A DNA stretch of 46,756 bases, taken from IMG/VR virus record IMGVR_UViG_3300047462_000753, positions 1-46,756 of that record. One strand, written 5' to 3'. The number at the start of each line of letters is the position of its first letter. Position 1 is the first letter of the stretch. The stretch comes from a virus. Shown here piece after piece: positions 13,686 to 25,917 of this stretch. The position numbers and the translations under genes are program-made. The notes below the pieces were generated by a model. The model made no database searches. It was given only the letters and a program-made list of their open reading frames with translations, and had not been told where the DNA came from.

Positions 13686-14348
13686 ATGTCGAGCCAATGG
13701 TACGCAATCCGCACCGAGACGGGCCGTGAGCTTTCTGTGGCCAAAGAACTGCGGCCTGATAAGGAAGTCGAGGTCGATGAATATTTGGGCCGGCCAGACG
13801 CGGACATTTACTTGCCGATCTGCGAGAGCCTGGGCGTGCTGCCTGAATGCGGCCTGACCGTGAAGGGGACCATCCTGCCGAGTTATCTCTTCGTCCGAAC
13901 CGATGCGGTGGGGCGGCTGATATCGCAGATCAGGGAGATCGCCGAGCGGCGCGGGATATGGATCAGCATCATGCGAAGCCCGATGAACCCGCTTCCGGTG
14001 TCGGACGATGCGATCAAGGACATGCGCTATGAGTGCGAGAAGCTGATCAGGCAGACATCCGAGACACCGGATCTGGACTGGATGCTCGGCAAAACCTTCA
14101 AGATCCAATCCGGCACCTGGGCCGGCTATGAGGGGCCGTGCTGGAGCTTCGACAAGAATAATCAGCCGAAAATCGCCCTGCCCGTGTGCAAGGTGATGAC
14201 GCCGGTTCCGATCCCGCTCGACTGCCTGTGCCTGACGCCGGTGCAGGAGCAAACACAACATTTTGTTGATAGCTTTCGGAAGAAGCACTATAAGTCGAAG
14301 CAATCAACAAGGCGGAAAAGCCGAAACACTCTGGAGGTGGCCCTATGA
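13686..14348 (+). CDS. Phage NusG paralogue (NGN + KOW-like), putative antiterminator
   Basis: 220 residues. The N-terminus (WYAIRTETGRELSVAKEL ... ILPSYLFVRTD) is a NusG N-terminal domain, the part that binds the clamp helices of RNA polymerase. Residues about 137-175 (GKTFKIQSGTWAGYEGPC) have the KOW pattern of a fold that contacts ribosome, Rho or RNA. NusG/RfaH-type paralogues change pausing and termination. It sits between the early operon's terminator-like hairpin and the terminase genes, the position of a late antiterminator (Q-like role). GGGGGATC precedes the ATG. The function in late transcription is an inference from fold plus position. Confidence 0.8.
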   Translation: MSSQWYAIRTETGRELSVAKELRPDKEVEVDEYLGRPDADIYLPICESLGVLPECGLTVKGTILPSYLFVRTDAVGRLISQIREIAERRGIWISIMRSPMNPLPVSDDAIKDMRYECEKLIRQTSETPDLDWMLGKTFKIQSGTWAGYEGPCWSFDKNNQPKIALPVCKVMTPVPIPLDCLCLTPVQEQTQHFVDSFRKKHYKSKQSTRRKSRNTLEVAL

Positions 14349-14386
14349 GCCCCTGGAGTGGCCGCGCCTTGGAGCGCCTACTATGA
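14345..14386 (+). CDS. Thirteen-codon linker ORF
   Basis: MSPWSGRALERLL. It starts in the NusG-like stop (ATGA) and ends in the TerS start (ATGA). Like the ORF at 13039 it bridges a short gap and could couple translation. It contains the GGAG used by TerS. Low confidence as a protein. Confidence 0.25.
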   Translation: MSPWSGRALERLL

Positions 14387-14904
14387 CCCCCAAAGAAAGC
14401 CGCTTCTGCGTCGAATACACTATCGACGGCAACGCCACGCGCGCTGCGAAGGATGCCGGCTATTCACCCAAGACGGCCTATGCCGCCGGCTGCCGCCTGC
14501 TGAAGAAGCCGGACGTCAAGGTACGCATAGCCGAGCTGAGGGCCGATCAGCTTCAACGCCTGAAGGCCACGGCAGATGATGCCGAGATCGAGATGCGGCG
14601 GATCGCCCTATACGATCCCGCGGACTATATCGATGTGAAGTCTCCCGATGATGTGGCCGCCCTGCCGGAAGACAAGCGGCGTGCCATTGTCGGTTGGAGC
14701 TGGGATAGGAACGGAAACTTCACCCTCCGCTTTGCCAAGACACAGGGGCTCGAAATGCTTGGCCGGCGCCATGGGCTGTTCAAAGAGAAGGTGGAGCACA
14801 CCGGAAAGAACGGCGGCCCGATCCAGATCGAAGGCGGCGGTGTCTCGGGCCTGCTGGCCGCGACCCTTGCCGAAGCGGCCGACGATGCCGATCACCAAGG
14901 ATGA
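14383..14904 (+). CDS. terS: Terminase small subunit
   Basis: 173 residues. The N-terminal part (MTPKESRFCVEYTIDGNATR, AAKDAGYSPKTAYAAGCRLL, KKPDVKVRIAEL) is the DNA-binding helix-turn-helix of the Terminase_2 family, which recognises the phage pac or cos site. The rest (FTLRFAKTQGLEMLGRRHGL) is the oligomerisation part. I chose ATG 14383, with GGAG nine bases upstream, because the conserved domain begins there. It overlaps the large subunit by 20 bases, as paired terminases often do. Confidence 0.93.
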   Translation: MTPKESRFCVEYTIDGNATRAAKDAGYSPKTAYAAGCRLLKKPDVKVRIAELRADQLQRLKATADDAEIEMRRIALYDPADYIDVKSPDDVAALPEDKRRAIVGWSWDRNGNFTLRFAKTQGLEMLGRRHGLFKEKVEHTGKNGGPIQIEGGGVSGLLAATLAEAADDADHQG

Positions 14905-16390
14905 CCGGGAGCAGTATCGGCAACTGAGGGGCGTGTGGCGGAAGCAGCCGGAACTCTATGTCCGGCACCGCCTGGGATTGAACCCGACCGGCCAGCAACG
15001 CGAACTGCTCTCGGCCATCTCACCCTCCGGCGCCAAGGTCAGCGCCCGCGCCGGCCACGGTGTCGGCAAATCGGGCGCGACGTCGGGCATCATCCTTTGG
15101 CACCTAGAGTGCTTCGACTATAGCCGCATCGTCGCCACGGCGCCGTCGGCCAGCCAGCTATACAGCGTGCTGTGGGCGGAACTGGCGAAATGGATCCGCC
15201 GCGGCGACGAGAAGGCGAAGGCCGATGGCCTGCCCTCGGAACTGTGGCTGTCGAGCCTGTTCGGCGTCACTCAGGACCGTGTCTATGACAAGGGCGCGCC
15301 GACCGAATGGTTCGCGGTGGCGCGCACCAGCCGCAAGGAAAACCCCGACGCCCTGCAAGGTTTCCATGCCTCTGACGTCGATATCAGCGCGGACGGCAAC
15401 GCGGCGATCCAGCGCAGCGACGGCGGAGGCTCCATTTTGTTTGTGATCGAAGAGGCATCCGGTGTTCCGGACGTGATCTTCGAGGTGGCGGAAGGCGCTC
15501 TGTCGAGCCCGGGCGCGCGGCTGCTGATGATCGGCAACCCGACGCGCAACACCGGCTTCTTCGCCAGGTCGCATAAGCAGGACCGATCGTCCTATAAGAC
15601 GCTCCATTTCTCCTGCAGCGATTCTCCGCTGGTGGACAAAGGCTATCGGGCGTCGCTGGTCAAGAAATACGGCGAAAACTCGAACATCGTCCGAGTGCGC
15701 GCCGACGGGGAATTCCCCAAGCAGGATGACGACGTGCTGATCCCGCTCGAGGCGGCGGAGGCGGCGCTGACACGCGAGCCCAGGCCGTCTACCGGCAAAC
15801 GGATCCTCGGCGTTGACGTGGCGCGCTACGGCGATGACCGGACGGTCTTCGTGCTGCGCGCCGGCACCACGATCGAGCACATCGAGATCGCCTCGAAACA
15901 AGACACGATGGTGACGGCCGGCCGGGCCGTGGCGCTGCGTCGGGAACTGAATGCCGACGCGATCCATGTGGACGTAATCGGCGTCGGCGCCGGTGTCGTC
16001 GACCGCCTCAAGGAAGTCAAGCAGCCGGTGGTGGCGGTGAACGTCGCCGAGGCCGCGCCCGAGCGCCGCAAGTCCAAGATCGATGCCCAAGGCCTGCGCC
16101 TGCGCGATCATCTGTGGCTGGAGATGCGGGACTGGCTGGCCGATGAAGAGCCGTCGTTCGTCGGCGCCGAGGGCGAACATGCGCAGGATCTGGCGGGCGA
16201 ACTGGCCAGCGTCAAATACAAATTCGATAGCTCCGGCCGGATCGTTGTGGAGAGCAAGGACGAGATGAAAGCCCGCGGATTGCGATCCCCTGATATTGCC
16301 GATGCGCTGGCGACGACCTTCGCTCCCGGCGGCGGCCGGCTCACGATCAGCGACGCTGCGCTGGCGAATATCAAGCGTCGGCGCCGATAG
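14885..16390 (+). CDS. terL: Terminase large subunit
   Basis: 501 residues. The ATPase has Walker A GHGVGKS (57-63), Walker B ILFVIEEASG (about 183-192) and the coupling region NPTRNTGFF. The RNase H-like nuclease follows with Asp in LGVDVARYGDDRTV (about 308-321), DVIGVGAGV and Asp in DIADALATTF. It pumps DNA into the prohead and cuts concatemers. The catalytic set is complete, so it should be active. Its stop overlaps the portal start by one base. Confidence 0.96.
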   Translation: MPITKDDREQYRQLRGVWRKQPELYVRHRLGLNPTGQQRELLSAISPSGAKVSARAGHGVGKSGATSGIILWHLECFDYSRIVATAPSASQLYSVLWAELAKWIRRGDEKAKADGLPSELWLSSLFGVTQDRVYDKGAPTEWFAVARTSRKENPDALQGFHASDVDISADGNAAIQRSDGGGSILFVIEEASGVPDVIFEVAEGALSSPGARLLMIGNPTRNTGFFARSHKQDRSSYKTLHFSCSDSPLVDKGYRASLVKKYGENSNIVRVRADGEFPKQDDDVLIPLEAAEAALTREPRPSTGKRILGVDVARYGDDRTVFVLRAGTTIEHIEIASKQDTMVTAGRAVALRRELNADAIHVDVIGVGAGVVDRLKEVKQPVVAVNVAEAAPERRKSKIDAQGLRLRDHLWLEMRDWLADEEPSFVGAEGEHAQDLAGELASVKYKFDSSGRIVVESKDEMKARGLRSPDIADALATTFAPGGGRLTISDAALANIKRRRR

Positions 16391-18375
16391 TGACGTCTGC
16401 CCCCAGCAGCGGCCGGGCTCGCCAGCCTCGGGTTCCCCGCAAGCGGCCGAAGATGCATATCAGCGACATGGCGATGGTCCGTGCGCGCATGCGCCGGTCA
16501 TCGAAAGGCGTGCCAGCGCAGGATGCCGTCAGCCTGTTCAAGATGGCGCAGCATCCACCCGGCGTCGCGCCGAAGATGGCGATGGACGATCCGTTCGGCG
16601 GCCTGGCCGGCTGGGCGGGAACCGCACTCGCTGGGGCCATGATCGAGGGTCAGACCTTCATCGGCTATCCGGTGCTGGCCGAGCTGGCGCAGCGCCCGGA
16701 ATATCGGCGCATCAGCGAAGTGATCGCCCGCCATATGACCCGGAAGTGGATCAAGTTCCGTGCCGTAGGCGAAGACGATAAGGGCGACAAGATCGCTGTC
16801 ATCGAAGAGGCGATGAAGCGGCTTAATGTCCGCGAGGTCTTCCGCAAGGCGGCCGAGCAGGATGGCTTCTTCGGGCGCGGGCACCTCTATCTCGACTTCG
16901 GCACCACCGATGACCGGGACGAGCTCAAGACGCCAATCGGCGATGGTCACGATCAAATCAGCCGGTCGAAGGTCGCCAAGGGAAGCTTGAAGCGCCTGAA
17001 GCCGATCGAGGCGGTCTGGTGCTACCCGACCAGCTACAACTCGAACAATCCGCTGAAGCCGGAATGGTACAAGCCCAACGCCTGGTTCGTCATGGGCACG
17101 GAGATCCACGCATCGCGCCTGCTGACCTTCATCGGACGCGAGGTGCCGGACCTGCTGAAGCCGGCCTATTCGTTCGGCGGCCTGTCGCTGTCCCAGATGG
17201 CGAAGCCCTACGTCGATAATTGGTTGCGCACCCGCCAGAGCGTTGCTGACATCATCAGCTCCTTCTCGGTTTTCGTGCTGAAGACCAACGCCCTAGAATC
17301 CCTCGCACTCAATGGCGAGGACGTCATGAAGCGGGCGGATATCTTCAACGCCTGCCGTGACAATGCCGGCGTGATGATTGTCGACAAGGAAACTGAGGAT
17401 TTCGCCAACGTGGCGGCTCCTCTCTCGGGATTGCATGAGCTGCAGGCGCAGACCCAAGAGCATATGGCCGCAGTGTCGGGCATCCCGATCGTCGAACTGC
17501 TGGGCATCCAGCCGGCCGGTCTGAACGCCTCTTCCGAAGGCGAGATCCGGACCTTCGAGGACTGGATACACTCGTCACAGGAGACGCTGTTCCGCCCCAA
17601 TCTGACGCGGATTGTCGGTTTCATCCAGCTTTCCGAGTTCGGGGAAGTGGATCCGGACATCACCTTCGAATTCGAGCCGCTGCGCGCTCTGGACGAGAAG
17701 GAAATGGCCGAGATGCAATTGACCAAAGCGCAGACCGACGCCGCTCTGGTTGATGCTGGCATTATTTCGGCGACGGACGCCCGCCAGCGGCTATCCGACG
17801 ATCCCGATAGCCCTTACCAGGGCCTGGACCCCGACGATACGCCAGCACCGGATATCTCCGAATTGCTGGGCGGCGCTGGCGAAGCTGGCAAGCAGCCCGG
17901 TGCCGAGGAGTATGACCAGGCCGCCGCCGATTGCGATCTCGGCGCGGACGGCGAATGGGAAGAGGCCAAGCACCCGCGCGGCGAAGGCGGCCAGTTCGGC
18001 TCCGGTGGCCAGGGCGGTGGCGAGTTCGATCCGCACGCCGAAGCCGCCAAGGGCGCCGAGGCGATGGATAAGGTCATCTCGTCGAAGGCCGATGTCATGA
18101 GCGCCATGACGCGGCCGGAGATAGGCGCGATCGACTTCCGCTGGGGCGACAAAAACGGCGGCATTGCGCACATCATTGCCAAGCGAGGCGAAGGTGCGGC
18201 CAAGAAAATGTCCGACGTGTTAGCCCACGGCAAAGTGTCAGTCGGCGTCACGCGGCAGGGTCGGACGCGAGTTCAGATCGCGCATGGCGGCTGGGTGGCA
18301 TCTCTTTCACCGGACTTCCATGGGGAAGCTGGTCACTGGTTGGTGACAGGCTTTGAGCAGGAAGAGGGGAAATGA
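16390..18375 (+). CDS. DUF1073 portal protein with C-terminal PBECR-type nuclease-like domain
   Basis: 661 residues. Residues about 50-470 are a DUF1073/anti-CBASS-Acb1-family-type portal (YRRISEVIARHMTRKWIKF, HLYLDFGTTDD, SFSVFVLKTNALESLALNGE, GLNASSEGEIRTFEDWI), the ring through which DNA enters the head. After a hinge (EAKHPRGEGGQFGSGGQGGG, about 528-547), residues about 575-661 read IGAIDFRWGDKNGGIAHIIA, SVGVTRQGRTRVQIAHGGWV and HWLVTGFEQ. This order is typical of the phage Barnase-EndoU-ColicinE5/D-RelE-like (PBECR) nuclease superfamily, usually fused to MuF proteins. The start is GTG; ATG 16453 is an alternative. A portal carrying this domain could inject a nuclease (inference). Confidence 0.85.
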   Translation: MTSAPSSGRARQPRVPRKRPKMHISDMAMVRARMRRSSKGVPAQDAVSLFKMAQHPPGVAPKMAMDDPFGGLAGWAGTALAGAMIEGQTFIGYPVLAELAQRPEYRRISEVIARHMTRKWIKFRAVGEDDKGDKIAVIEEAMKRLNVREVFRKAAEQDGFFGRGHLYLDFGTTDDRDELKTPIGDGHDQISRSKVAKGSLKRLKPIEAVWCYPTSYNSNNPLKPEWYKPNAWFVMGTEIHASRLLTFIGREVPDLLKPAYSFGGLSLSQMAKPYVDNWLRTRQSVADIISSFSVFVLKTNALESLALNGEDVMKRADIFNACRDNAGVMIVDKETEDFANVAAPLSGLHELQAQTQEHMAAVSGIPIVELLGIQPAGLNASSEGEIRTFEDWIHSSQETLFRPNLTRIVGFIQLSEFGEVDPDITFEFEPLRALDEKEMAEMQLTKAQTDAALVDAGIISATDARQRLSDDPDSPYQGLDPDDTPAPDISELLGGAGEAGKQPGAEEYDQAAADCDLGADGEWEEAKHPRGEGGQFGSGGQGGGEFDPHAEAAKGAEAMDKVISSKADVMSAMTRPEIGAIDFRWGDKNGGIAHIIAKRGEGAAKKMSDVLAHGKVSVGVTRQGRTRVQIAHGGWVASLSPDFHGEAGHWLVTGFEQEEGK

Positions 18376-18503
18376 GAACCCGGTGATTCGGCCAACCCCC
18401 ATACGAACGGGCCGGTCTACGCACGATGGGCCTTTCGGCTCTTGCCCAAGGTGGGAGCGGGTTCGGGAACACTATACGCCGATCATCATCGAAATTCCAA
18501 GGC

Positions 18504-18529
18504 GAAGCGCCTGAGCCTCTCGGCGCTTC
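18504..18529 (+). promoter_or_regulatory. Hairpin in the leader of the 18623 gene
   Basis: GAAGCGCC (18504-18511) pairs perfectly with GGCGCTTC (18522-18529) around a ten-base loop. No T-run follows, so it is more likely an mRNA stability or processing element than a terminator. Confidence 0.45.
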
Positions 18530-18533
18530 ACCA

Positions 18534-18580
18534 GGGGCGCCGGGGTCGGCGGCGGGCGGCCATCATGGCCCTGGCGCCCC
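18534..18580 (+). promoter_or_regulatory. Larger nested hairpin in the leader of the 18623 gene
   Basis: GGGGCGCC (18534-18541) pairs with GGCGCCCC (18573-18580). Inside, GGCCAT and ATGGCC form a second small stem. It lies 42 bases before the start codon. Confidence 0.45.
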
Positions 18581-18622
18581 GAACCCACACGAAGACAACG
18601 CATCTCCAGGAAGTGAGAAGTC

Positions 18623-20404
18623 ATGAGCGTCGAAGCTGCCATCACGGTTACCCCCGGAACGGGCGCCTCGGTTGACGTGTTCAACTCGGGAACCGGCGGA
18701 GCCTCGCGCCAGGCCATGGTTATCGCCGATCCCGCCACTGCCGCCAATGTCGCCACCGTCAATTCGGCTGGCCAGGTCGCCGTCCAAGGCACCGGCACGG
18801 TCGGGTCGGCCTCCGGCAACACCGCTGCGGTCGTTGGTGGTCAGGATGGTTCCGGGATTGTGCGGGTTCTCACCGCCTCGGTCTTCCACAATGCCGACAA
18901 TCAGGCGCTGACCGGCACCAGCTATGGCCAGTTGACGGGCGGCGTGGCTCAGTTGCTCAACGTCGCTGGCAATCTCGACCGCCAGCGCGAAACAGGTGAA
19001 GACGGCATCCCGGCCAATGGCATCTCGGCTTCTGCCGCCAATTTCGCCATGTCGTTCAAGACGTCGATCGCCCTGGCGATCACGGCCAATGCCAGCCCGC
19101 AGGCGGTCACCCCCGGCGCCATGTCCGGCACCATCAACGGCGTCCCCTGGTCGATCCAGCAGGGATCGACGCTGTCGATCGATACGGGCGCCAACCAGGA
19201 ATATGTCTATGTCACCTCGGTGACCAGCACGACCTTCTCGGCCGTGTTTGGCAAGAGCCACGGCACCAACTCGAAGGTCGGCGGTTTCGTCTACAACCAG
19301 GAACGCGATGCCGCCGGCGAGGCAGATGGCGCGGCCGGCATTGGCACCGCCGTGGCGGCGGAATATGAATTCAATGGCGGCGGCCCCGGCGGCGGCAGCT
19401 TCGACCGCGCCCGCAACCTGCAGGGCAAGGGAAAGACCAGCCAGACTATCAGCGCTGGCGGCACCCAGGGCAGCCTGTCGCTGACGATCGGCGCTAATAC
19501 CGGTCTCAAGGCCGGCATGCAGGTGATGCTGGCGACCGCATCCTTCCCGACGTCGGGCAGCTATGAGGCGGTCTATGTCGACCTGAGCTATGTCGAGGGC
19601 ACCAACACGGTGCCGCTGCTGTCGGCTATCCAGCTCGCGAACACCTACACCACCGTCTATTACGACGCCTTCTCCGCCGACGGACCCGGCCTCAGCGGCT
19701 TCTTGCCGATCGGCGTGGGGATCGAGGAAGAGGCCCTGTACGACCCGGTCACCGGGCTGTACTTCGTTGAGCGCGCGGCGACGACGGATGCTTGCGCGCC
19801 GCAGAATGTCGTCATCGAAAATCCCGGCCTCTTCAATGGCGCGACGATCGACCGCCAGCGCGCCGCCCCCGGCACCATCGGCGTGGCGGCCGTCAGCTCG
19901 GACGGCACCAAGGCGACCTATCGCGTCTCCGGCGTTGGCCTCACTCCGGCCGCCGCCTGCACCGACTTCATCACCATCACCGGCTCTGGCTCGAAGACGG
20001 TCCGCTTGAAATCGATCCGGCTGTCGGGCATTGCCACCACCGCTGGCGCCATTCCCGTCCAGCTCATCCGGCGCTCGGCGGTGAACACGGGCGGCGCCAG
20101 CAGCGCTGCCACCGCGGTGAAGCACGATATCAACGATGGTGCCGCCTCCGCCGCCGTCGCGGTCTATTCGGCCAACCCCACCGGCCTGGGCACCGCCGTT
20201 GGCGCCATGGCCACCGATCGCCTGTTCTTGAACCTGAGCACGGCCGCGCCGCTGCCCGTCGTGCGCGACTTCGCGATCAGGCAGGACAAGGCGGCGATCC
20301 TGCGCGGCACCACCGACATCATCGCCATCAATTTCGGCGGCAACACCATCCCCAGCGGCGGCGCCGTCGATTACGAAATCGAGTGGGAAGAGGACAATTC
20401 TTAA
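18623..20404 (+). CDS. Large virion protein, beta-rich, unknown
   Basis: 593 residues, rich in Gly, Ala, Ser and Thr, beginning SVEAAITVTPGTGASVDVFN. Beta-strand repeats (QTISAGGTQGSLSLTIGANT and GSKTVRLKSIRLSGIATTAG) and an acidic C-terminus (VDYEIEWEEDNS) are visible. This composition is normal for head decoration or fibre proteins. Its place between portal and MuF, in the head module, argues for a head-associated fibre or decoration role. I recognise no named family. Confidence 0.75.
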   Translation: MSVEAAITVTPGTGASVDVFNSGTGGASRQAMVIADPATAANVATVNSAGQVAVQGTGTVGSASGNTAAVVGGQDGSGIVRVLTASVFHNADNQALTGTSYGQLTGGVAQLLNVAGNLDRQRETGEDGIPANGISASAANFAMSFKTSIALAITANASPQAVTPGAMSGTINGVPWSIQQGSTLSIDTGANQEYVYVTSVTSTTFSAVFGKSHGTNSKVGGFVYNQERDAAGEADGAAGIGTAVAAEYEFNGGGPGGGSFDRARNLQGKGKTSQTISAGGTQGSLSLTIGANTGLKAGMQVMLATASFPTSGSYEAVYVDLSYVEGTNTVPLLSAIQLANTYTTVYYDAFSADGPGLSGFLPIGVGIEEEALYDPVTGLYFVERAATTDACAPQNVVIENPGLFNGATIDRQRAAPGTIGVAAVSSDGTKATYRVSGVGLTPAAACTDFITITGSGSKTVRLKSIRLSGIATTAGAIPVQLIRRSAVNTGGASSAATAVKHDINDGAASAAVAVYSANPTGLGTAVGAMATDRLFLNLSTAAPLPVVRDFAIRQDKAAILRGTTDIIAINFGGNTIPSGGAVDYEIEWEEDNS

Positions 20405-20457: not shown

Positions 20458-21228
20458 TTGAACTTCGCCTTCGACGACGCCCGCTTCGGAAAGCGCAAGG
20501 AAAAGGCCTATTTCGCCAAGGTGCGGCGTGCCGAATTCCAATATGCGCGGAAGCTGCGGCAGATCGCGAGGCAGATCGGCCAACTGACCGGCGCCTTCGA
20601 TCCGCTCGACCTGACGTCGATGCAAGCCTGCCAGGAAGCCTTGTCCGGCTATTCGACGATCATCAGCGCCTGGGCCCGATCAGCGGCCAGCGCCATGCTG
20701 TCGGATCTGATGAAACGCGACGAGAAGGCCTGGGCGGCGCTGTCCAGCGACATATCGCGCAACCTGCGTCTCGAAATCCAGTCGGCGCCGATCGGCCAGG
20801 TCCTGCGGCAATATCTCGACGAGCAAGTGGTGCTGATCACCAGCCTGCCTCGTGATGCGGCCGAGCGGGTGCAGAAGCTGGCCCTCGAGGCGCATACCGA
20901 GACAGGCGCCCGGCAGCGCGAGCTGGCCCAAGAGATCATGCGCACTGGCGAGGTCACGATCAGCCGCGCCAACCTGATCGCCCGCACTGAGATTGCCCGC
21001 GTCTCATCCGGCTTGACGATGGCCAGGGCGCAGCATATTGGCTCGGAAGGATATATCTGGCGCACTTCGGCCGACACGGATGTTCGATCTTCGCACCGGG
21101 CCCTGAACGGAACCTTTCACCGGTGGGATGACCCGCCGGAATGCGACCCAGGTCACCACGCCCATCCAGGCATGATTTGGAATTGCCGCTGCTGGCCGGA
21201 GCCGATCCTGCCGGACGTCATCGCCTAG
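20458..21228 (+). CDS. MuF-like head morphogenesis protein
   Basis: 256 residues. The C-terminal MuF core is clear: ISRANLIARTEIARVSSGLT, RTSADTDVRSSHRALNGTFH and HPGMIWNCRCWPEPI. In Mu and SPP1-like phages this protein sits at or inside the portal vertex and is needed for infectious particles. The start is TTG with GGTGAG upstream. Unlike many MuF proteins it has no C-terminal toxin domain; in this phage that type of domain is on the portal instead. Confidence 0.88.
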   Translation: MNFAFDDARFGKRKEKAYFAKVRRAEFQYARKLRQIARQIGQLTGAFDPLDLTSMQACQEALSGYSTIISAWARSAASAMLSDLMKRDEKAWAALSSDISRNLRLEIQSAPIGQVLRQYLDEQVVLITSLPRDAAERVQKLALEAHTETGARQRELAQEIMRTGEVTISRANLIARTEIARVSSGLTMARAQHIGSEGYIWRTSADTDVRSSHRALNGTFHRWDDPPECDPGHHAHPGMIWNCRCWPEPILPDVIA

Positions 21229-22209: not shown

Positions 22210-22385
22210 TGCGCTCCCCCGGCTTCTACTGGGTCCGCCGTTTCCGCGATGACCCAGAGTTCACCATCGCGCAATTCGGTGCTGATGGGCTCTGGGTCAC
22301 GCCTGGGGATATCCCAGTGCTTCACGATAGCGCTTTTGTCGAGATCGACGAGCGCCAGATCGAGCGCGTGAGCCATCATGACTGA
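22209..22385 (+). CDS. Small acidic protein, unknown
   Basis: 58 residues, MRSPGFYWVRRFRDDPEFTI and onward, starting in the TAA of the previous gene (TAATG) and running 8 bases into the next. The pattern 'GFYWVRR...FTIAQF..DGLWVTPG' is a short beta-rich fold seen in small phage proteins that some call tail or head accessory. No function can be assigned. Confidence 0.6.
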   Translation: MRSPGFYWVRRFRDDPEFTIAQFGADGLWVTPGDIPVLHDSAFVEIDERQIERVSHHD

Positions 22386-23814
22386 AATCACCAATACCAA
22401 CGGCATGGCGCTCGACCGGGCAACCGCACGGTCCTACGACGCTGACGGCCGTCTGCGGCTGGACAAGTCGAACATCAGCAAGGCCAACATCTGCGAGTAC
22501 CTCGGCAGCGAGATCCCGGATTTCGAGGCCCTGGGGCTCGACCCGGCCAAACGCTACAAGCTGCTCCGCCATCCCGACGAATTGAAGAAGGCCGCATCGA
22601 CCTTCAACAATCTGCCGATCCTCTCGCGGCATGTCCCCGTCTCAGCCGACGACCATCAGCCCGACCTCGTGATCGGCTCGACCGGCACCGATGCCGAATA
22701 TGAGGATCCGTACCTCTCGAACAGCCTCATTTTCTGGGCACGCGACGCGATCGACGACATCGAGAGCGAGGTCAAGAAGGAATTGTCCAGCGCCTATCGC
22801 TACCGCGCGGACATGACACCCGGCACCCACGAAGGCGAAGCCTACGACGGCGTGATGCGGGATCTGGTGGGTAATCACGTCGCCTTAGTGCGTGAAGGAA
22901 GAGCCGGGCCAGATGTGGTTGTCGGCGACAGCAAGGAGAGTACCGACATGACGAACATCGTACTGTCGCGGAAGGCGACCGTGGCCAAAGGCGCGCTGAT
23001 GGCGTTCCTCATGCCGCGGCTGGCTCAGGACGCGAAGGTCGACGTCACCCCGCTGTTGCAGGGTGTGAACAAGACCAATTTCAAGGACAAGAAGGCTGGC
23101 ATCGTCGCCGGTTTGCGCAAACAGACCGAGGGCAAGCTGGCCAAGGACGCCAGCATCGACGACGTCGCCAAGCTGCTCGACGCCCTGGAGGGCAATGAGG
23201 AGCAAGGTCTCGACGAGGAAGACCCGCTGAAGGCCATCAAGCCCGGCACCGGTCAGCCCGACGACGACAAGACCATGGACGCCGAGCCGAAGGGCAAGGG
23301 CGCCATCCTCGACTATTTCAAGGACAAGCTGCCGCCCGAGCATCACGCCAAGCTGGCCGAGATGCTGCCGGACGATGCGGCTGCCGAGGACGAGGAAGAC
23401 GACGAAAAGGAGATCGAGGTCAAGGCCAAGAAACTCGACAACCAGAACGACAAGGCCCGCGAGGGCAACAAGCCGGACTTCGTGTCGAAGAAGGCCATGG
23501 ACGCGGCGATCACCGCCGCCGTCCAGACCGCGGTCAAATCCCAGCAGGAGGTCCGCGACGCTGAGCGTGTCGTGCGCCCCTGGATCGGCGATCTCGCCAT
23601 CGCCTGCGACAGCGCCGATGCCGTCTATGGCACCGCGCTCAAGATGCTGGGCGTCAAGACCGAAGGGGTCCACCCGTCGGCCTACCGCACCATTCTGGAA
23701 TTGCAGCCCAAGCCGGGCAGCAAGGTCCAGTCCACCAGCGTGGCCATGGACGCCGCAGGGGCCAAGGGCTTCTTCGAGCGGTTCCCGGACGCCGCCAAAA
23801 TCGAACATCTTTAA
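22378..23814 (+). CDS. DUF2213 prohead protease fused to scaffold-like region
   Basis: 478 residues. Residues 1-180 are DUF2213 (RSYDADGRLRLDKSNISKAN, YKLLRHPDELKKAASTFNNL, PILSRHVPVSADDHQ), the family of capsid maturation proteases in phages with DUF2184 capsids. Residues about 280-400 are acidic and Lys/Glu-rich with coiled-coil character, like a scaffold. In such phages the fused scaffold templates prohead assembly and is then digested. The order protease-cement-capsid is the usual one. Confidence 0.85.
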   Translation: MTEITNTNGMALDRATARSYDADGRLRLDKSNISKANICEYLGSEIPDFEALGLDPAKRYKLLRHPDELKKAASTFNNLPILSRHVPVSADDHQPDLVIGSTGTDAEYEDPYLSNSLIFWARDAIDDIESEVKKELSSAYRYRADMTPGTHEGEAYDGVMRDLVGNHVALVREGRAGPDVVVGDSKESTDMTNIVLSRKATVAKGALMAFLMPRLAQDAKVDVTPLLQGVNKTNFKDKKAGIVAGLRKQTEGKLAKDASIDDVAKLLDALEGNEEQGLDEEDPLKAIKPGTGQPDDDKTMDAEPKGKGAILDYFKDKLPPEHHAKLAEMLPDDAAAEDEEDDEKEIEVKAKKLDNQNDKAREGNKPDFVSKKAMDAAITAAVQTAVKSQQEVRDAERVVRPWIGDLAIACDSADAVYGTALKMLGVKTEGVHPSAYRTILELQPKPGSKVQSTSVAMDAAGAKGFFERFPDAAKIEHL

Positions 23815-24789: not shown

Positions 24790-25917
24790 ATGAGTTTTGT
24801 GAATATTCAGGAGGCCCAAGCCGCGTGGCATGCCGATCAGGCCATGCTGGAGGCGAGTGGCGTCTATCTGCCGGGCGTTCGGGCCTATGTGCCCGATGCG
24901 TTCAAACGCGACTTCAACCTGGCCATGGACAGCCTGAGCAATGCGGGCCTCGCCATGGACGCCCAGCCGGGCCTGATGGGCGATCCGAACTCCGCCGTCC
25001 CGGCCATGCTCACCGCCATGATCGACCCGGCGGTGTTCAAGATCCTGTTCGCCCCCAACCGGGCGGCGGCGATCTTCGGCGAAGCCCGCAAGGGCACCTG
25101 GCTCGACGAGACGATCATGTTCCCGACCGTCGAGCACACCGGCGAAGTCTCCAGCTATGGCGACTACAACGAGAACGGCCGCGCCGGCGCCAACACCAAC
25201 TGGCCGCAGCGCCAGGCCTACCTGTTCCAGACCGTCAAGGAATATGGCGAGCGGGAACTGGAGCGTGCCGGTCTGGCCCGGATCAACTGGATTTCGGAGG
25301 TCGACCAAGCGGCGGCCACCGTGCTCCACAAGTTCCTGAACCTGACCTATTTCTATGGCGTCTCTGGCCTGCAGAATTATGGCCTGCTGAACGACCCCAA
25401 CCTGACCAGCGCGCTCACCCCGGCCACCAAGGCGTGGGGCGGCACCACCTGGTTCAACGGCACCGCGCCGGCTGCGACCGCCAACGAGGTCTATAACGAC
25501 ATCCTGGCGATCTACGAAAAGCTGGTGAGCCAGGCCAACGGCCTGATCGACGACGAAACCAAGCTGGTGCTGGCCTTCTCGCCTGCATCGTCGGTGGCGT
25601 TGAAGTTCACCAACTCGTTCGGCCTGACGGTCCGCGACATGCTGAAGGAATCCTTCCCCAACCTGCGGATCGAGACGGCCATCCAGTACGGTGTTCTGTC
25701 GACCTCCAATCCCCAGGGTCTCGCCGGCGGCAATCTGGTTCAGATCATCGCCGAAGAGGTCGAAGGGCAGGACACCGGCTTCTGCAGCTTCAACGAGAAG
25801 ATGCGGGCTCACCCCATCGTTCGCGCCATGTCTTCCTTCAAACAGAAGATCACGGCCGGCACCTGGGGCGCGGTCATCCGCCAGCCCTTCGCCATCGCCC
25901 AGATGCTGGGCGTCTGA
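24790..25917 (+). CDS. Major capsid protein (DUF2184)
   Basis: 375 residues, matching DUF2184 capsid proteins with the HK97 fold: NIQEAQAAWHADQAMLEASG, YVPDAFKRDFNLAMDSLSNA, ERELERAGLARINWISEVDQ and the C-terminal MRAHPIVRAMSSFKQKITAG with VIRQPFAIAQMLGV. It forms the icosahedral shell. A strong ribosome-binding site (AAGGAG) and codon choice biased to C-ending codons fit high expression. A hairpin follows 23 bases after its stop. Confidence 0.93.
   Translation: MSFVNIQEAQAAWHADQAMLEASGVYLPGVRAYVPDAFKRDFNLAMDSLSNAGLAMDAQPGLMGDPNSAVPAMLTAMIDPAVFKILFAPNRAAAIFGEARKGTWLDETIMFPTVEHTGEVSSYGDYNENGRAGANTNWPQRQAYLFQTVKEYGERELERAGLARINWISEVDQAAATVLHKFLNLTYFYGVSGLQNYGLLNDPNLTSALTPATKAWGGTTWFNGTAPAATANEVYNDILAIYEKLVSQANGLIDDETKLVLAFSPASSVALKFTNSFGLTVRDMLKESFPNLRIETAIQYGVLSTSNPQGLAGGNLVQIIAEEVEGQDTGFCSFNEKMRAHPIVRAMSSFKQKITAGTWGAVIRQPFAIAQMLGV

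What the first reader, a model, noticed from the sequence alone, without database searches (positions are those of the whole stretch)
16390..18375. Portal protein carrying a phage-toxin-type (PBECR-like) nuclease domain
Seen: a DUF1073-type portal continues after a Gly/Arg hinge (about residues 528-547) into IGAIDFRWGDKNGGIAHIIA ... HWLVTGFEQ. Known: this pattern is that of PBECR nuclease domains, usually the C-terminal module of MuF proteins, where they act as injected or polymorphic toxins. Inference: here the domain has moved to the portal, while the MuF protein (20458-21228) has none. Twelve copies of a nuclease would sit at the DNA entry vertex. No immunity gene is evident; the 247-base gap downstream could be where one was.
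Basis: partly seen in the sequence, partly recalled or inferred. Interest (0 to 1): 0.8.

Follow-up and report, generated by a model that had tools for sequence, protein, structure and literature searches.

The report
Phage portal carrying an RNase payload
A phage probably infecting proteobacteria has an RNase-toxin-like domain hung by a floppy tether from the ring protein through which its DNA enters and leaves; such fusions were already described, but the tether carries a short motif that recurs where many other phages attach enzymes to their head proteins.

Summary
ORF 16390-18375 (661 aa) is a Phage_portal_3 (PF06381, formerly DUF1073) portal, then a disordered linker and a C-terminal PBECR1 domain (PF18809, 36.6 bits against a cut-off of 27.6). 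Both predicted catalytic residues, His594 and Thr653, are present, and the domain models as an independent fold (pLDDT 90). It is an accessory: 97 of 116 distinct sister portal tails are under 100 aa, and the closest relatives (66% identical) end soon after the core. Long sister tails carry other payloads (ADP-ribosyltransferase, NUDIX, His-phosphatase, ParB, GNAT). The idea is not new: Iyer et al. 2017 reported PBECR fusions to MuF and portal proteins. I found eight more portal-PBECR1 fusions on two portal families; the window's PBECR1 lies outside their clade, so its fusion is probably independent. No immunity gene is evident, and the downstream gap gives no sign of a lost one. The least expected part is the hinge, [FW]xExxHPRxxxGxF: it recurs between head proteins and unrelated enzymes, in tandem copies, and at the N-terminus of stand-alone cargo, conserved as peptide, not DNA. 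Best reading: a virion-packaged RNase effector tethered inside the head and delivered at infection. Activity and delivery are inferred.

The parts
16390..18375 (+). portal-PBECR1 fusion protein, 661 aa
   Evidence: ORF; Pfam; PHROG 146 portal 1.9e-109
16669..17742 (+). portal core (Phage_portal_3, residues 94-451)
   Evidence: full-length model matches solved portals E217 8fvh (8.9e-22) and Pa193 9b41
17842..18030 (+). disordered tether, residues 485-547
   Evidence: AF2 pLDDT below 50 at 485-532 and 536-545
17956..17997 (+). hinge motif WEEAKHPRGEGGQF (residues 523-536), member of [FW]xExxHPRxxxGxF
   Evidence: synonymous codons vary
18031..18360 (+). PBECR1 nuclease-like domain (fold 548-657; Pfam envelope 572-659)
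18169..18171 (+). predicted catalytic His594
   Evidence: invariant in A1 (not pattern-selected); 41/43 in A3 (partly selected by pattern); active-site description in PMC5512222
18346..18348 (+). predicted catalytic Thr653
   Evidence: 42/43 Thr, 1 Ser in A3; invariant in A1
18376..18622 (+). non-coding gap after the portal, no plausible immunity gene; folds somewhat better than shuffles
   Evidence: z -2.9
20458..21228 (+). short MuF head protein, no payload
22378..23814 (+). DUF2213 head maturation protease, candidate processor of the tether

Best explanation
The protein is a working portal subunit whose C-terminus carries a virion-packaged effector. Up to twelve PBECR1 domains hang from the portal barrel into the head on a ~60-residue flexible linker. 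At infection they enter the host with, or just ahead of, the DNA, perhaps after being cut off at the hinge, and cleave host RNA (tRNA or other) to favour takeover or disable an RNA-dependent defence. Shown by computation: domain identity, conserved catalytic residues, separate fold, optional and exchangeable nature, recurrent hinge. Inferred: location inside the head (by analogy with the E217/Pa193 portals), release, delivery, RNase activity and target.
For: PBECR1 above the gathering cut-off. His594/Thr653 conserved, the configuration Iyer et al. describe for PBECR RNases. AF2 pLDDT 90 alone; disordered 485-545 and folded 548-657 in full length. A profile of 43 PBECR1 domains finds in the PDB a CdiA toxin (7m5f_C, E 0.011, aligned over the GLxHI segment); RelE/YoeB-family toxins are among the weak Foldseek matches. 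Only 19 of 116 distinct sister tails are >=100 aa, and these carry ART, NUDIX, His_Phos, ddrB-ParB and GNAT, a polyvalent-effector repertoire. Eight other portal-PBECR1 fusions, on PF06381 and PF04860 portals. The E217 portal C-terminal barrel projects into the head (PMC10329688); Pa193 portal residues 529-765 have no density (PMC11042391).
Against: No significant Foldseek match to a solved BECR nuclease (best E 0.24), so the nuclease fold rests on sequence profiles and the marginal CdiA match. No direct evidence of packaging, cleavage or ejection. A portal is normally retained in the virion, so delivery needs proteolysis or threading that is unproven. Only one further contig, 100% identical, holds this very fusion, so selection on the domain cannot be measured.
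Confidence: 0.62

Rival explanations
1. Structural or packaging role: the domain binds nucleic acid at the portal vertex, for example to clear RNA or scaffold during packaging, and is never delivered.
For: Its place at the DNA vertex; the portal barrel of E217 folds only with DNA present.
Against: Most sister portals work without it and others carry unrelated enzymes; the same domain sits in polyvalent proteins and on a different portal family.
Confidence: 0.12
2. Inter-bacterial or prophage-type polymorphic toxin with an immunity partner, as proposed for MuF toxins.
For: PBECR belongs to a toxin superfamily; MuF toxins are fused to head proteins and often followed by small ORFs (PMC5576092).
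Against: No immunity-like ORF here; the other portal-PBECR1 fusions mostly lack a clear one; no integrase or repressor among the window ORFs I scanned (not exhaustive).
Confidence: 0.12
3. Degenerate passenger: a domain acquired by recombination that is folded but inactive.
For: Single lineage; some otherwise common positions differ, for example the GAF block reads SAM here, as in a few relatives.
Against: Reading frame, predicted fold and both catalytic residues intact.
Confidence: 0.12

Closest known systems
PBECR-portal and PBECR-MuF fusions of Iyer et al. 2017 (PMC5512222)
   Same: Same domain family and the same architecture: portal followed by PBECR.
   Different: This is a further, apparently independent instance on a myophage portal; the hinge is not described there (the word linker is absent from the main text).
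MuF polymorphic toxins (Jamet et al. 2017, PMC5576092)
   Same: Toxin-like C-terminal module on a head protein next to the portal.
   Different: Module sits on the portal (12 copies expected), not on MuF (1-2 copies); no immunity ORF.
Pbunavirus portals E217 gp19 and Pa193 gp19
   Same: Closest solved portals; long C-terminal extension with no density, in the relative JG024 related to a domain of polyvalent proteins.
   Different: Different payload domain; no HPR hinge found in JG024.
T4 Alt and internal proteins with capsid-targeting sequence
   Same: Packaged, protease-processed, ejected enzymes; an N-terminal tag marks cargo (PMC7411985).
   Different: No demonstrated tag or cleavage here; the hinge also sits between modules, not only at N-termini.

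Membership tests
Phage_portal_3 (PF06381, DUF1073) portals | Match above gathering score over the core | tested here: met
   282.9 bits against 33.8, residues 94-451
Phage_portal_3 (PF06381, DUF1073) portals | Portal fold and position between TerL and head genes | tested here: met
   Foldseek 8fvh 8.9e-22; TerL upstream, MuF/protease/capsid downstream
PBECR1 (PF18809) | Match above gathering score | tested here: met
   36.6 bits against 27.6
PBECR1 (PF18809) | His in the helical segment and C-terminal Thr/Ser | tested here: met
   His594, Thr653; definition
PBECR1 (PF18809) | BECR fold shown by comparison with solved RNases | tested here: inconclusive
   No Foldseek hit below 0.001; weak RelE/YoeB matches; CdiA profile match E 0.011
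PBECR1 (PF18809) | Metal-independent endoRNase activity | not testable with these tools
   needs purified protein
MuF polymorphic toxin | Toxin domain C-terminal to a MuF domain | tested here: not met
   the MuF protein is short; the toxin-like domain is on the portal
MuF polymorphic toxin | Small immunity ORF directly downstream | tested here: not met
Polyvalent protein (multi-domain injected effector) | Two or more effector domains in one packaged protein | tested here: not met
   one effector domain only; shares a domain family and presumably the mode of delivery

The most novel reading that the evidence does not exclude
The hinge [FW]xExxHPRxxxGxF(GSGG) is a general cargo tag of tailed phages: a short peptide, recognised by a head protease or assembly partner, that marks enzymes for packaging and release. 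It works both as a junction on portals, MuF proteins and head proteases and as an N-terminal leader on stand-alone cargo. The PBECR1 portal is one user of it.
Probability: 0.35. Interest if true: 0.72.

Novelty: new member of a known kind. Interest (0 to 1): 0.45.

Why it matters
The fusion is a clean, testable example of a phage that may use the portal to carry an RNase into the host. The hinge may matter more. If it is a packaging or cleavage tag, it would give a sequence handle for finding injected phage effectors, many of which are unannotated, and would explain how enzymes fused to a portal can leave the virion.

Tried and rejected
Looking for close relatives of the domain alone in viral and genome contigs gave only the 100% copy L002; the alignment A1 was too divergent to search with. 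PBECR1 is rare in 385 genomes of one bacterial class (2 above the cut-off). An immunity gene in 18376-18622: rejected, no supported ORF and none typical of the other fusions. Extension as a general portal part: rejected. Hinge as chance: rejected, 20 in 1.0 million aa against a mean of 0.0 in 20 shuffles. Hinge as a DNA recombination signal: not favoured, since synonymous positions vary freely. Significant fold match to a solved RNase: not found. Literature searches for the hinge found nothing, but only open-licence papers are held.

Full report
Observation. ORF 16390-18375 encodes a 661-aa protein. Pfam places Phage_portal_3 (PF06381, the former DUF1073) at residues 94-451 (3.7e-84) and PBECR1 (PF18809) at 572-659 with 36.6 bits against a gathering score of 27.6. 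The gene sits between the large terminase and a head module: short MuF 20458-21228, DUF2213 head maturation protease 22378-23814, major head protein 24790-25917, and a sheathed tail.

Domain. Seven PBECR1 sequences (the window and six homologues found by tblastn, without pattern selection) share invariant His (portal 594) and Thr (portal 653). In 43 domains the Thr column is 42 Thr and 1 Ser and the His column 41 of 43 His. Of those rows, 39 came from loci collected with a DNA pattern that fixed WGD, G and HI, so the conservation of those residues in that set is partly circular; the Thr column is not. Iyer et al. [quoted passage not shown] AlphaFold2 gives pLDDT 90 and pTM 0.80 for the domain. 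Foldseek against the PDB found nothing significant; RelE/YoeB-type toxins appear among weak matches, and a sequence profile finds a CdiA toxin at E 0.011 across the GLxHI segment. The nuclease assignment is therefore good by sequence family and only suggestive by structure.

Anatomy. In the full-length model residues 485-545 are disordered and 548-657 fold separately. The closest solved portals are E217 and Pa193. In E217 the C-terminal barrel projects into the head, and in Pa193 residues 529-765 have no density. By analogy the PBECR1 domain would float inside the head on a tether. The Pbunavirus relative JG024 has in this region a domain related to parts of polyvalent proteins.

An exchangeable slot. 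Among sister portals collected by the portal sequence, 116 distinct closed tails have a median length of 40 aa, and 19 are at least 100 aa. The closest relatives, about 66% identical, have no payload. Long tails hold ADP-ribosyltransferase (L017, L062, L087, L104, L107), histidine phosphatase (L058, L099), NUDIX (L109, L146), ddrB-ParB (L070), GNAT (L013) and a weak phosphoribosyltransferase match (L034). In cultured phages, Burkholderia phage Bcep1 has a portal annotated as similar to NUDIX hydrolases, and Orimi01 has the hinge followed by a region similar to the ADP-ribosyltransferase-bearing tails.

Other portal-PBECR1 fusions. Eight more were found (L169, L188, L194, L202, L204, L217, L218, L221), on PF06381-type portals and, in L204, on PF04860. 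In a tree of 52 domains these eight fall with stand-alone hinge-PBECR1 genes in one supported group (98/90), while the window's domain lies elsewhere among domains of non-portal proteins (the fork holding the window has support 93/82). An independent fusion is likely but not proved. Iyer et al. had already stated that PBECR is fused to MuF and portal domains, so the architecture is known.

Immunity gene. Nothing in 18376-18622 resembles a gene; it has no Rfam match and folds somewhat better than shuffles (z -2.9). The gaps behind most other portal-PBECR1 fusions lead to a ~270-290-aa ORF without a clear small gene between; L217 and L218 have longer gaps with only weak small ORFs.

The hinge. 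WEEAKHPRGEGGQF belongs to a motif [FW]xExxHPRxxxGxF, usually followed by Gly/Ser. In ORFs of the portal-selected loci it occurs 20 times in 1.0 million residues against a mean of 0.0 in 20 shuffles. It precedes payloads on portals, stands between two payloads in one protein (L013, L034, L107), and begins stand-alone PBECR1 genes (L164, L171). Upstream pieces: 27 of 71 Phage_portal_3, 8 Phage_portal_2, 3 Portal_Mu, 5 Phage_Mu_F, 3 DUF2213. Downstream pieces, 144: Topoisom_I 13, ADPrib_exo_Tox 12, Zeta_toxin 9, NUDIX 9, ART-PolyVal 3 and others; many have no match. Codons at the fixed positions vary, so selection is on the peptide. No Pfam model covers the isolated hinge peptides, and I found no description in the papers available; that is a limited search. 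A processing site, a packaging tag and a plain modular linker all remain possible. The T4 capsid-targeting sequence is an analogy only.

Verdict. A real portal-PBECR1 fusion, new as an instance and known as a kind. The hinge is the part worth following.

Noticed in passing
18623-20404 (+): 593-aa ORF between portal and MuF with no Pfam or PHROG match, absent from the sister loci except the 100% copy; in several sisters MuF follows the portal directly.
   Followed up: partly
18376-18622: GC-rich non-coding gap with strong predicted stems (z -2.9), no Rfam family, no terminator.
   Followed up: partly
L273:955-5016, L306, L343: Six hinge motifs in one ORF, five in another, and five separate ORFs of one locus each with a hinge: apparent serial cargo arrays.
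   Followed up: no
A5 set (L235-L353): Type IB topoisomerase (13 of 144) and zeta toxin (9 of 144) are among the commonest cargo after the hinge.
   Followed up: no
L234 (Helicobacter pametensis prophage): Portal region annotated as two successive HI1409-family genes, the hinge in the second.
   Followed up: no
14648-16390: The longest terminase ORF overlaps the small-terminase ORF 14263-14904 in another frame; its true start is probably downstream of 14648.
   Followed up: no
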